Assembly: GCA_000965745.1 (NCBI GenBank)
Contig: CP009479.1
Coordinates: forward strand, 506,457-570,456
Direction of reading: 5' to 3'
DNA length: 64,000 nt
From: an uncultured archaeon
GTDB taxonomy: Archaea > Thermoplasmatota > Thermoplasmata > Thermoplasmatales > Thermoplasmataceae
The notes under the pieces are model-generated. The model ran no database searches, was not told the origin of the DNA, and worked only from the letters and a program-made list of their open reading frames with translations. Within the stretch, counting starts at the first letter, position 1. Every line of letters starts with the position of its first letter. Positions 55,040-58,586 of this stretch are shown here, one piece after another. Made by a program: the position numbers and the translations under genes.

Positions 55040-55279
55040 TCACCTCGTCCTTTTCGAAACTATTCTTATCTCTACTTTGTAGACATCATTTTCCTCAGTG
55101 ATGTTGAGTAGCTCATTCTTGGTCCTCTCGCACCAAGCCTTAGTATCCGCTTTCACTCCCGGATCGGTAGCAAGAAGTTCTATCACATCTCCATTGCTGG
55201 ATTCCCTGTAAGCCCTTATCAGATCGGTAATAGGGCCGGGGCAGGAAGTACCCCGGCTGTCCACCTTCAGAGTAGTCAT
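55040..55279 (-). CDS. tusA: TusA-family sulfur carrier protein
   Basis: A 79-aa sulfur-transfer protein with the C-P-x-P motif in SRGTSCPGPITDLIRAYRES, which carries persulfide sulfur. The frame opens at 55321, but ATG 55279 (MTTLKVDSRG) is the family start. It lies 11 nt downstream of the dsrE gene and before the SQR-like gene, the standard arrangement for cytoplasmic sulfur trafficking in sulfur-oxidising archaea. Confidence 0.93.
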   Translation of the reverse strand: MTTLKVDSRGTSCPGPITDLIRAYRESSNGDVIELLATDPGVKADTKAWCERTKNELLNITEENDVYKVEIRIVSKRTR

Positions 55280-55290
55280 TCTTAACACCC

Positions 55291-55722
55291 TTAGATGAAG
55301 ATTACCTCTCTGTCTTCGCACATCTGCAGAAATGCTGCTGCCCCAACAACATCATCAACAATCGGGTCAAGATCATTCTTCGTGTCTATCTTGAATGCGC
55401 CGGCCATCATTGAGCAGACATAGACCTTTACATCCCCCATTTCCTTGGCTTCTTTGAGCATATCGTACCAGGATGGTGCTTTCATCTCCTCCATTCCCTT
55501 CATTAGATCCGGGACAAGGTCCTCAAATTCCTTCGGCATTCTGTTAACCTTCTTGTATCCGTCTTTTCTGAATCCCTGAATTGCCCACCCTGTCACAAAT
55601 ATAGATACAGGCATCTCGAGATTAACCGCCGACTGTGTCAATACACCCAGCGGAATGAACTTATCCGCTGTTCCTGAGAACATTACAAAGTTTAGGCCTT
55701 TTTTTGCCATAGAGTCCACCAT
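55291..55722 (-). CDS. DsrE-family sulfurtransferase
   Basis: DsrE/DsrF-fold protein, 143 aa. It has NFVMFSGTADKFIPLGVLTQ after the start and a conserved cysteine in VYVCSMMAGAF, the expected persulfide site, with PVSIFVTGWAIQGF between. DsrE proteins exchange persulfide with TusA, whose gene follows. ATG 55722 lies about 22-24 nt from a TTAATA element (55741-55747), so it is probably leaderless; ATG 55710 is an alternative. The IS110 element lies about 90 bp upstream and did not remove this promoter. Confidence 0.88.
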   Translation of the reverse strand: MVDSMAKKGLNFVMFSGTADKFIPLGVLTQSAVNLEMPVSIFVTGWAIQGFRKDGYKKVNRMPKEFEDLVPDLMKGMEEMKAPSWYDMLKEAKEMGDVKVYVCSMMAGAFKIDTKNDLDPIVDDVVGAAAFLQMCEDREVIFI

Positions 55723-55747: not shown

Positions 55748-55812
55748 TCTGGGCACCTTATGGTTAACGTACCGTGCAGGGTTCCACCGCTAACATTCCT
55801 GCATGATGGCTT

Positions 55813-56964
55813 CTATGAAAAAAGTTCTTTCGACACTCCTTTCAGCCTATCCTCCCTAATTAATTTTACCGTGTCCTTGAGTTCCTTAGTCTGTCGGGGT
55901 TTACTTGCCCTTGCAGACATAGCCTTCATCTTCTTCTCTGTCAGTGCATCAACGTGATCAACGAATTCAACACCCCTGGAAAGCATTGTCCATATGATCT
56001 CCAGAAGCTTCCGGGCAACTGCAACAATAGCCCTCTTCATGCCAACACGTCTGACAATGCTGAGATACTTCTTCTTCATCCTTCCGGAGTACTTGATGAT
56101 GTGATGCGCTGCATTCACGAGGATGAAGCGTATCATGGAAGGTCCGTGCTTCGTTATATGACCACGGTAATCAGTTCCTCCCGACTGGTCCTGTTTCGGC
56201 ACCAGGCCGGCATAGGATGCAAGCTTCTCCTTAGATTCGAAGCGTGATACATCATCGATCTCTGAGACGATTGCAGCAGCTGAATAGACATTTATCCCGG
56301 GGATTGTCATGAGCAGCTTCACGTCGTTCCTTTCATGGCACATTCTTGCGATCTCGTCCTCCATTGTTGATTCCCGATCCTTCAGCTCCCTTATCCTTTC
56401 AATCATGTCTGAAACGATTATCCTGTCTGATGCACTCATCTTTTCAGAGGATCTCTCAATCTCACTGAGGCCACGCTTCCCGAAGATATCCGTGGCATCT
56501 ATGGAGATGCCGTATCTTCCCAGTACAGCATGAACGCGGTTCTTTATCTCCGTGACCGCATCGCCCAGGGATTTCCTGTACCTGACTATGGAGCGTAGGT
56601 CATCTGCCTCCTTTGATGGCAGGTGCACTTCCGGCAATTCTCCCAGTCTCAGGAGCTTAGCTAGCTTGTATGAATCTTCCTTATCGTTCTTCTTCGAGGT
56701 GTTGAAGATCAGTGAAAGCTTCACAGGATCTGCCATGTGCACGGAGAATCCCATGTCCCTCAGCATCCTGGTGCAGTACTTTCCTGCGGTGGACACTTCC
56801 AACGCAATCTCAGGTTCCAGGTAAAGATACCGTTCCATGAACATATTCCAGGAATCGGTGTCATTGCCCATCCTGAACTGCTGTTCAATTGTGCCGCCAT
56901 TTCCCATTTCCGTAACATACACGCTATTTTTATGTACGTCGCATCCAATATAGATTACAACCAC
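55813..56964 (-). CDS. IS110-family recombinase (transposase)
   Basis: DEDD-type recombinase, 383 aa, intact. N-terminal RuvC-like domain: first D in YIGCDVHKNSV, E in ALEVSTAGKYC, then the KNDKEDSYKLAKLL segment. C-terminal Tnp domain with MTIPGINVYSAAAIVSEIDD and KLASYAGLVPKQDQSGGTD, where the serine after Q is the nucleophile position. The start is taken as GTG 56964, which overlaps an AGGAGGTG ribosome-binding-like motif, an odd arrangement. The stop is only a few bases from the predicted element end, so nearly all noncoding sequence is upstream, as in the IS110 (not IS1111) group. Confidence 0.93.
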   Translation of the reverse strand: MVVIYIGCDVHKNSVYVTEMGNGGTIEQQFRMGNDTDSWNMFMERYLYLEPEIALEVSTAGKYCTRMLRDMGFSVHMADPVKLSLIFNTSKKNDKEDSYKLAKLLRLGELPEVHLPSKEADDLRSIVRYRKSLGDAVTEIKNRVHAVLGRYGISIDATDIFGKRGLSEIERSSEKMSASDRIIVSDMIERIRELKDRESTMEDEIARMCHERNDVKLLMTIPGINVYSAAAIVSEIDDVSRFESKEKLASYAGLVPKQDQSGGTDYRGHITKHGPSMIRFILVNAAHHIIKYSGRMKKKYLSIVRRVGMKRAIVAVARKLLEIIWTMLSRGVEFVDHVDALTEKKMKAMSARASKPRQTKELKDTVKLIREDRLKGVSKELFS

Positions 56965-56978
56965 CTCCTATGTGGTAT

Positions 56979-57148
56979 GTGAGAGTTTAAAGTCGGAGAA
57001 TGCTCGACAGTCTTCTATTCACCCTTGTTTCAGGGTAGTATGTCGAGACGAAGGGCAGCAAATCTCGGGTACGATCTCACAGATCAAGCCATCATACTGC
57101 TGCCACTCCGACTCTCACGCTATCATCGTCATGATAGCGTGGACAAAA
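56979..57148 (-). ncRNA. Predicted IS110 bridge RNA with target and donor loops
   Basis: On the minus strand (same direction as the recombinase) the RNA reads: 5' hairpin CACGCTATCAT-GACG-ATGATAGCGTG (57141-57116); a closing stem AGTCGGAG 57113-57106 with CTCCGACT 56998-56991 plus CTCAC/GTGAG; a first arm GGCAGCA 57104-57098 with TGCTGCC 57060-57054 and inner hairpin GATCT/AGATC; and a second arm CTCGACA 57047-57041 with TGTCGAG 57009-57003 and inner hairpin ACCCT/AGGGT. A 5' stem-loop followed by two looped arms is the architecture of IS621-type bridge RNAs. First-arm loop AUGAUGGCUU equals the flank at 55803-55812; second-arm loops match the element ends. Confidence 0.7.
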
Positions 57149-57309
57149 GAGCTTTTTTCATTGACATCTCCAATAAGCGTGCATCGAGAGAATATGCCTG
57201 AACTGGCGAAACGGTTTTACAGGTTTTTAAAATGATTTGATGAGGGTCAGCAAAAAAAACCCAATTGCAGAAATCCTCTTGTTTTCCATTATATATCACT
57301 TCCCACATA
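57149..57309. other. Remaining noncoding left end of the IS110 element
   Basis: AT-rich stretch between the bridge RNA and the predicted element boundary, with no gene. It includes a minus-strand CTTATT at 57172-57177, about 26 nt before the predicted RNA start, which is the candidate TATA box for the bridge RNA. Nothing else recognised. Confidence 0.4.
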
Positions 57310-57421
57310 CTCTTGGCTTTTTCGCTTGTTGTGAGAAGGGTTTTTTTTCCTTCAACGGGATAGTATAATGGCCTATGTAGGCTAGTCTTAATTCAGGTCC
57401 CTTTCAATCTCCCGAATTAAG

Positions 57422-57449: not shown

Positions 57450-58586
57450 GTGCGTGACGCGATAGTGGTTGGTGCCGGTCCATCAGGCTCCTACCTTTCA
57501 TACCTTCTTTCGAAGCTGGGCTATGATGTCCTGAATCTCGAGGAGCACCAGGAGATCGGTAAACCGGTGGAGTGCACCGGGCTGGTCTCCGAGAGGGTTT
57601 TCAGCTATGTTAAGAGCAATTCAAGAATAAATTCCGTAACCGGTGCAAATGTTTTCTTCCCGAACGGAAGAAGTGTTCACGTCGAGAAGCCCGAAAGAAC
57701 AATAGTCATAGAGAGAGACACGTTCGATCGTGATGTTTCTGCAATGGCCATATCTGCAGGTGCTGACGTTAAGATTGATGCCAGGGTGCAATCTGTCAAG
57801 ACCGGGAGCGATGGAGTTACAATAAAGTACAAGGAAGGCGGCCAGATAAAGGAAGAGAGGGCAAAAATCATAGCAGGTGCAGATGGCGTCAACAGCATGG
57901 TCAGAAAGGAGCTTTACGGGGTGAAGTCAAAGAGGATAGTGTCCACCTACCAGGTAGATTCAGCGACCCCAATGGAAGACCAGGACAGCGTGGAAGTGTA
58001 TCTCGGTTCGGAATCCACAAGAGGCTTCTTTGGTTGGGCAACTCCGGCAGGGGAACTGACAAGGATTGGAGTTGGGACATACGGAATCTCTCCATTCAAG
58101 TACTTCGGCAGAATCAGCAAAAGATTTCCGAAGGACAGAATTATAGGCGTCACAGGAGGGGCTATACCAATCGCGTACCTCAAGAAGACATACGGGTACA
58201 GGAACCTCCTGGTAGGCGATGCTGGAGGCATTGTCAAGCCTTTGACCGGTGGTGGGATATACACTGGTGTTGTTTCAGCAAAGCATGCAGCGAAAACGCT
58301 TAACAATGCGCTTGAAAAGGAAGATTTCTCAGAGAAGCTCATGTCCCAGTATCAGAAGGACTGGAAGAGAGAGCTTGGGAGGGAGCTCTGGATTGACGGC
58401 AAAATTCAGAAGTATTTCTCATCCCTGAGCGACAAGACCCTGAATATGATATATGAGGCAGTATCCAGGAAGAGGATGGTAGAACTGATTAATCACATTG
58501 GAGACATAGATTACCCGTCAACTGTTGTCCTGTCACTGGCTGTGAGAAACCCGAGACTGCTTATGAGACTGATAACAAGAACCTGA
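57450..58586 (+). CDS. Geranylgeranyl reductase family flavoprotein
   Basis: FAD-dependent reductase of 378 aa, very probably digeranylgeranylglycerophospholipid reductase, which saturates the isoprenoid chains of archaeal membrane lipids. FAD loop IVVGAGPSGSYLSYLLSKLG; the family block PVECTGLVSERVF; a second FAD segment LLVGDAGGIVKPLTGGGIY. It is slightly shorter than the Thermoplasma enzyme but has all cofactor motifs. The start codon is GTG, supported by the TATA spacing. One base separates it from the downstream permease gene. Confidence 0.92.
   Translation: MRDAIVVGAGPSGSYLSYLLSKLGYDVLNLEEHQEIGKPVECTGLVSERVFSYVKSNSRINSVTGANVFFPNGRSVHVEKPERTIVIERDTFDRDVSAMAISAGADVKIDARVQSVKTGSDGVTIKYKEGGQIKEERAKIIAGADGVNSMVRKELYGVKSKRIVSTYQVDSATPMEDQDSVEVYLGSESTRGFFGWATPAGELTRIGVGTYGISPFKYFGRISKRFPKDRIIGVTGGAIPIAYLKKTYGYRNLLVGDAGGIVKPLTGGGIYTGVVSAKHAAKTLNNALEKEDFSEKLMSQYQKDWKRELGRELWIDGKIQKYFSSLSDKTLNMIYEAVSRKRMVELINHIGDIDYPSTVVLSLAVRNPRLLMRLITRT

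What the first reader, a model, noticed from the sequence alone, without database searches (positions are those of the whole stretch)
56979..57311. Readable bridge RNA of an archaeal IS110 element with guides matching the element ends and one flank
The noncoding side of the IS110 element folds as a 5' hairpin plus two looped arms, like IS621 bridge RNAs. The first arm contains AUGAUGGCUU, identical to the flank 55803-55812 just outside the predicted left boundary. The second arm contains ACAUACU, identical to 57305-57311, and AUAGAAG, complementary to 55810-55816. All four guides share a CT core placed at 55810-55811 and 57310-57311. The other target guide (loop GUACCCGAGAUU) pairs poorly with the right flank beyond the core. 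On this reading the core CT is on the strand opposite to the recombinase gene, which should be compared with IS621.
Basis: partly seen in the sequence, partly recalled or inferred. Interest (0 to 1): 0.8.

Follow-up and report, generated by a model that had tools for sequence, protein, structure and literature searches.

The report
Jumping gene with end-swapped guide RNA
This archaeal mobile element uses a small guide RNA, encoded next to its enzyme, to choose where it inserts; the RNA is wired to the opposite ends of the element compared with the best-studied example, and a sister group has the ends swapped back, so RNA position and wiring can change independently.

Summary
The finding is real but one boundary is wrong. 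The window holds an IS110-family element at 55810-57169 (1360 bp with both core dinucleotides), not ending at 57310. Its bridge RNA lies upstream of the recombinase on the same (-) strand and folds as described (z = -4.9; covariation in relatives). The long target guide matches the flank beyond the recombinase's 3' end (ATGATGG-CT). The donor guides match the true ends, GACAT-CT discontiguously and CT-TCTAT. The second target guide is weak in this copy. Across 24-36 relatives both target guides follow the reversed polarity (p = 2e-5 each, permutation), with no IS621 signal. That is the strand order published for IS1111 elements, with long subterminal inverted repeats, yet the RNA is upstream as in IS110 elements. 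A sister group (45-50% identity) has homologous RNA and repeats but the outermost bases exchanged between the two ends, restoring IS621 polarity (p = 2e-5). The tree needs one switch. A relative's empty site is exact. Expression and activity are untested. New variant of a known kind.

The parts
55810..57169 (-). whole IS110-family element including both core dinucleotides (1360 bp)
   Evidence: ends homologous to those of 3-copy relative G064 and about 20 others; similar lengths 1353-1411; core AG/AG found by script
55813..56964 (-). IS110 recombinase (DEDD + C-terminal serine domain), 383 aa, GTG start
   Evidence: Pfam DEDD_Tnp_IS110 1e-17 and Transposase_20 2e-24; phmmer to ISCro4 4e-9 and IS621 9e-7, with the D..D and GLxP----SG motifs aligned
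55810..55811 (.). core dinucleotide CT (AG on the recombinase strand) at the gene's 3' end (RE)
55812..55830 (+). subterminal inverted repeat, RE arm (TCTATGAAAAAAGTTCTTT)
   Evidence: pair I2, 89% complementary
57146..57164 (+). subterminal inverted repeat, LE arm (AAAGAGCTTTTTTCATTGA)
   Evidence: pair I2
56979..57148 (-). predicted bridge RNA (5' end at high coordinate); transcript ends not mapped
   Evidence: fold z = -4.9; consensus fold with 15 of 40 pairs showing two-sided changes in 16 sequences; G-U 75 against A-C 30 paired cells on this strand
57116..57141 (-). 5' hairpin of the bridge RNA
   Evidence: pair I24; covariation
57054..57104 (-). target-binding arm (stem GGCAGCA/UGCUGCC)
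57086..57095 (-). left target guide AUGAUGGCUU, identical to + 55803-55812
   Evidence: 7 of 8 outer bases match, family-wide p = 2e-5
57061..57072 (-). right target guide GUACCCGAGAUU; core plus 3 of 6 outer bases match the LE flank (weak in this copy)
57003..57047 (-). donor-binding arm (stem CUCGACA/UGUCGAG with inner hairpin)
   Evidence: donor-arm inner hairpin in the consensus fold; stem pairs counted
57037..57044 (-). left donor guide GACAU(A)CU, discontiguously complementary to the LE end AGATGTC (57163-57169)
   Evidence: sequence
57012..57018 (-). right donor guide AUAGAAG, identical to the RE end (complementary to + 55810-55816)
   Evidence: sequence
55803..55809 (+). left target flank ATGATGG read by the first target guide (flank beyond the gene's 3' end)
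57170..57179 (+). other target flank CCAATAAGCG (beyond the RNA-bearing end)

Best explanation
The feature is the bridge RNA of a single-copy IS110-family insertion sequence (55810-57169) of a Thermoplasmatales-like archaeon. The RNA is made from the non-coding end upstream of the recombinase, on the gene's strand. Its first loop reads the target, its second loop reads the joined ends of the excised circle, and the guides share the CT core. The pairing geometry is that of IS621, but the gene plus RNA cassette sits the other way round relative to the element's ends: the left donor is the RNA-bearing end and the right donor is the end after the gene, so CT lies on the strand opposite the gene and the long target guide reads the flank after the gene. 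This upstream-RNA, reversed-polarity layout is shared by three related archaeal groups; a sister group has the outermost bases of its two ends exchanged and so shows IS621 polarity. The most likely cause is inversion of the cassette between the long subterminal inverted repeats. Shown by sequence: ends, RNA fold, guide-end and guide-flank matches, polarity, one switch on the tree. Inferred: transcription, RNA-guided recombination, the inversion step.
For: Recombinase family and active-site motifs. Ends fixed by three near-identical copies at different sites, about 20 relatives and a gap-free empty site for L046. RNA fold z = -4.9, 15 pairs with compensatory changes. Polarity: groups 1+3+4 LTG = reverse complement of the right flank 103/192 against 52.5 expected, p = 2e-5; RTG = left flank 118/216 against 61.1, p = 2e-5; IS621 polarity p = 0.25 and 0.7; group 2 the reverse, p = 2e-5 and 0.017. 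Controls: IS621 itself, LTG matches the left flank and CT is on the gene strand; IS5075 (IS1111 type), reversed order with the RNA downstream. Group 1 LE reverse complement CTTTTTTCATGACATCT against group 2 RE CTTCTTTCATGACACCT, 15 of 17 identical (sequences). Tree: one polarity change, 100/99 support, in all of 200 bootstrap trees.
Against: No transcript or transposition data. The window's own second target guide matches weakly (3 of 6). No empty site was found for the window copy itself, nor for group 2. Guides and core registers were set by hand, though permutations use the same registers. Some relatives match only with a 1-2 base shift (L041, L047, L052, L069). Several copies are pseudogenes. 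Relatives L049/L050 do not match in the long guide.
Confidence: 0.85

Rival explanations
1. The reader's boundaries are right (55810-57311), the region 57170-57309 belongs to the element, and the donor end is ACATA-CT at 57305-57311.
For: ACATACU in the RNA equals 57305-57311 exactly.
Against: Relatives end at the position homologous to 57168-57169 and have unrelated DNA beyond it. The terminal inverted repeat stops there. The element length of about 1360 fits relatives. The relative's empty site shows that type of end.
Confidence: 0.03
2. The RNA is transcribed from the + strand, antisense to the recombinase, so that the core CT is on the RNA's own strand.
For: The region folds equally well on the + strand (z = -4.9), and the CT core is on +.
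Against: On that strand the guides violate the pairing rule shared by IS621 and IS5075 (5' guide identical to the left side, 3' guide complementary to the right side of one strand), and the loop order would be donor then target. G-U pairs outnumber A-C pairs 75 to 30 on the gene's strand. Homologous group 2 RNAs read canonically on the gene's strand.
Confidence: 0.04
3. The polarity difference between groups is not an inversion within a working element: the group 2 ends were acquired by recombination with another element, or the two layouts arose separately.
For: No intermediate was found. The exchanged part is only the outermost 5-8 bases. In G030/G033 a group 1 and a group 2 element abut end to end with a hybrid GACAT-CT-ACTATG junction, so ends of different elements can meet.
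Against: Both exchanged ends and both donor guides stay homologous (15 of 17 bases for one end). The tree needs one change only.
Confidence: 0.3
4. A dead remnant: the element matches bridge-RNA logic by descent but no longer moves.
For: Single copy in its genome; weak right target guide; many relatives broken.
Against: Open full-length recombinase, intact RNA helices, both ends and three of four guides intact.
Confidence: 0.25

Closest known systems
IS621 (IS110 group) bridge RNA system (PMC11208160, PMC11208158)
   Same: DEDD/serine recombinase, RNA in the upstream non-coding end on the gene's strand, target loop then donor loop, CT core shared by the guides, long first and short second target guide, one donor guide pairing discontiguously
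   Different: Here LD is the RNA-bearing end, RD the end after the gene, CT on the opposite strand, the long guide reads the flank after the gene; the discontiguous pairing is in the left rather than the right donor guide; 19-nt subterminal inverted repeats instead of 2-3 bp
IS1111 family seekRNA elements (PMC11187229; IS5075 examined)
   Same: Guide strand order (top-strand complement first) and long subterminal inverted repeats
   Different: RNA is upstream, not downstream, of the transposase gene; the recombinase does not group with IS5075 in the tree
ISEc21 (IS110 family, intermediate-length transposase; PMC11187229)
   Same: Upstream RNA, transposase of similar length (345-385 aa class)
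   Different: Published guide order is bottom-strand match first, the opposite of this element
Archaeal group 2 relatives (L056-L060)
   Same: 45-50% identical recombinase, homologous RNA, repeats and donor guides
   Different: Outermost end bases exchanged between the two ends: IS621 polarity

Membership tests
[quoted passage not shown]
   both above the curated cut-offs
IS110 family (broad) | insertion without target duplication, centred on a dinucleotide core | tested here: met
   met for relative L046: gap-free empty site with a single AG; no empty site available for the window copy itself
bridge RNA system | non-coding-end RNA with two internal loops | tested here: met
bridge RNA system | loop sequences match target and donor and covary with them across relatives | tested here: met
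   p = 2e-5 for both target guides; donor guides follow the ends in groups 1-4 (by eye)
bridge RNA system | RNA is expressed and bound by the recombinase | not testable with these tools
   needs RNA sequencing and binding assays
IS110 group (narrow, as IS621) | RNA in the upstream end | tested here: met
IS110 group (narrow, as IS621) | bottom-strand guide first, CT core on the gene strand | tested here: not met
IS110 group (narrow, as IS621) | short (2-3 bp) subterminal inverted repeats | tested here: not met
   19 nt, 89% complementary
IS1111 group | RNA in the downstream end | tested here: not met
   IS5075 control
IS1111 group | top-strand complement first in the RNA | tested here: met
IS1111 group | long (7-17 bp) subterminal inverted repeats | tested here: met
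IS1111 group | transposase related to IS1111 over its full length | tested here: inconclusive
   window group is separate from IS5075/IS4321, but branches are long

The most novel reading that the evidence does not exclude
The interior of IS110-type elements (gene plus bridge RNA) inverts between the subterminal inverted repeats, perhaps by the recombinase's own inversion activity, while the ends and guides stay functional; RNA position and guide polarity are then independent, switchable traits, and the IS110/IS1111 division by those traits reflects such flips rather than two mechanisms. An alphaproteobacterial IS110 with upstream RNA and reversed polarity (L113, by eye) hints that the layout is not only archaeal.
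Probability: 0.3. Interest if true: 0.7.

Novelty: new variant of a known kind. Interest (0 to 1): 0.58.

Why it matters
Published surveys tie three traits together: upstream RNA, bottom-strand-first guides and short end repeats (IS110), against downstream RNA, top-strand-first guides and long repeats (IS1111). This lineage mixes them, and a close sister group has the ends exchanged, which separates RNA location from guide polarity and gives a natural test of whether the recombinase cares which way its own gene faces. It also matters practically: tools that predict targets of IS110 elements assuming IS621 polarity would read the wrong flank in these elements, and archaeal bridge recombinases of this lineage would have to be programmed with the strand logic given here.

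Tried and rejected
Rfam search gave only sub-threshold chance hits. A viral-contig scan found no relative. An empty site for the window copy was sought in 77 family genomes; none spans the junction. An empty site for group 2 copy L057 was sought; homologues diverge 5-7 bases before the junction, so it is not an empty site. More distant archaeal elements L101-L107 carry the long non-coding end downstream and were not analysed further. The antisense (+ strand) RNA was rejected on pairing geometry and G-U against A-C counts. IS621 polarity for groups 1, 3 and 4 was rejected by permutation. A first attempt at collecting proteins lost 15 loci because alignment rows carried locus names; repeated correctly.

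Full report
What is there. The window contains one IS110-type recombinase gene on the minus strand, 55813-56964, the only full copy in its 2.23-Mb genome. Its closest solved relatives are ISCro4 and IS621. That RNA folds far better than shuffles (z = -4.92), and an alignment of 16 related RNAs supports a 5' hairpin, a target arm and a donor-arm hairpin, with 15 of 40 predicted pairs showing two-sided changes.

Boundaries. Relatives with about 60% identical recombinases exist in the same family. Genome G064 has three copies over 99% identical at unrelated sites. They begin AG|ATGTCATGAAAAAAG and end CTTTTTTCATAGA|AG in the gene's direction, and about twenty further relatives agree. The homologous left end in the window is AGATGTCAATGAAAAAAG, which puts the core CT (+ strand) at 57168-57169, not at 57310-57311. 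The window's 19-nt inverted repeat (55812-55830 / 57146-57164) ends at the same place. For relative L046, which interrupts another transposon's gene, uninterrupted copies in the same genome and in others align across the junction without a gap and with one AG. So insertion is exact with a shared dinucleotide core, as in IS621. The match of ACAUACU to 57305-57311 is best taken as coincidence; the guide is GACAU(A)CU pairing with AGATGTC with one base looped out, the kind of discontiguous donor pairing that was described for the right donor guide of IS621 (PMC11208160).

Polarity. In IS621, checked on two E. coli copies, the first target guide AUCGGGCCU matches the left flank ATCAGGC-CT beside the RNA-bearing end, and the left donor guide ACAGUAU matches the far end. 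In the window and its relatives it is the reverse: the first target guide is complementary to the flank after the gene, the second is identical to the flank before the RNA, the left donor guide reads the RNA-bearing end, and the right donor guide reads the other end. I tested this with permutations of guides against flanks (a first version). For groups 1, 3 and 4 together, reversed polarity scores 103 of 192 (expected 52.5) for the first guide over 24 elements and 118 of 216 (expected 61.1) for the second over 36 elements, p = 2e-5 each, the floor of the test. IS621 polarity gives p = 0.25 and 0.7. Group 1 alone gives 0.00012 and 0.00012, group 4 alone 0.0006 and 0.0002. Some rows are near-copies, so the p-values are guides to strength only. 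Registers were set by hand from the RNA sequences, but the same registers serve matched and permuted pairs.

A sister group with the ends exchanged. Group 2 (L056-L060 and others; 45-50% identical recombinase, RNA upstream on the same strand) begins CT-ACTATGAAAGAAG and ends CTTCTTTCATGACAC-CT. Its left end resembles the group 1 right end in reverse complement (CTTCTATGAAAAAAG), and its right end the group 1 left end (CTTTTTTCATGACATCT against CTTCTTTCATGACACCT, 15 of 17). The donor guides are homologous in both groups (GACA... and AAUAG-AG). Group 2 shows IS621 polarity (first guide p = 2e-5 over 11 elements with offsets 4-8 allowed; second p = 0.017 over 5) and no reversed signal (0.7, 0.56). 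So relative to the ends, gene plus RNA face opposite ways in sister groups. In a maximum-likelihood tree, groups 1 and 3 form a clade (100/97), group 2 is its sister (98/98), group 4 lies outside, and one polarity change suffices, in all of 200 bootstrap trees (first tree). With the root outside, group 2 is the one that switched. The exchanged part is the outermost 5-8 bases, just outside the shared inverted repeats, so an inversion of the interior between those repeats is the simplest account. That step is inferred.

Which strand is the RNA. The region folds equally on both strands, so folding does not decide. On the opposite strand the guides would break the rule shared by IS621 and IS5075 (5' guide identical to one side of a strand, 3' guide complementary to the other side of the same strand). 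In the aligned helices there are 75 G-U against 30 A-C paired cells when read on the gene's strand, some of them in dubious pairs; the direction is as expected for an RNA of that strand.

Comparison with what is known. Two 2024 papers define the field. PMC11208160 places the RNA upstream in the IS110 group with 2-3-bp subterminal repeats and downstream in IS1111 with long repeats. PMC11187229 reports that the order of the strand matches is reversed between four IS1111 elements and one IS110 element (ISEc21), and lists exceptions in RNA position but, in the text read, not in polarity. My IS5075 control (IS1111 type) shows the reversed order with a downstream RNA. The window's lineage has the RNA position of IS110 and the polarity and long repeats of IS1111. 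I found no description of this combination in the open-access library searched, which lacks most subscription papers, preprints, figures and (here) supplements, so an earlier report cannot be excluded. A bacterial relative (Pseudosulfitobacter, L113) looks the same by eye: second guide GTTGTTATC equals the left flank, first guide matches the right flank as TGAGATA. Not tested statistically.

What is weak. In the window copy the second target guide matches only 3 of 6 outer bases. A few relatives need a 1-2 base shift, and L049/L050 fail in the long guide. No empty site was found for the window copy or for group 2. Nothing here shows expression or movement.

Verdict.

Noticed in passing
L118/L119/L140/L141 (genomes G033 and G030): A group 1 and a group 2 element abut head to head with a hybrid junction GACAT-CT-ACTATG, as if one inserted exactly at the end of the other; the group 1 second target guide (AGU-AG-AU) fits that junction.
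   Followed up: partly
L189 730-784 (window's own genome, G000:C1:1500229-1500283): A decayed second left end with 5' hairpin of the same element group in the window's own genome; no recombinase match was found there.
   Followed up: partly
L048, L052 and L151: Three elements from different genomes carry the same target guide and sit in nearly the same left flank (GATTTGATTAATGTTTTA), so the target preference is kept across species.
   Followed up: no
L046 and L163: A group 1 element interrupts another transposon's gene (reading WDNIMIH at the site), and uninterrupted copies persist in the same genome, suggesting that conserved transposon genes serve as targets, as reported for ISEc21.
   Followed up: partly
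L062 and L064: Group 3 copies whose first target guide carries UU instead of CU at the core, one of them (L064) inserted at AA instead of AG: possible natural change of the core.
   Followed up: no
L075, L077, L079, L098 and L109: A more distant archaeal group from the same order carries the long non-coding end downstream with long inverted repeats; by eye its polarity is reversed as in IS1111.
   Followed up: no
window 55040-55722 (-) and 57450-58586 (+): The element lies between a DsrE-like gene (next to a small ORF of about 93 aa) and an FAD-binding protein gene; it is intergenic and breaks no gene.
   Followed up: no
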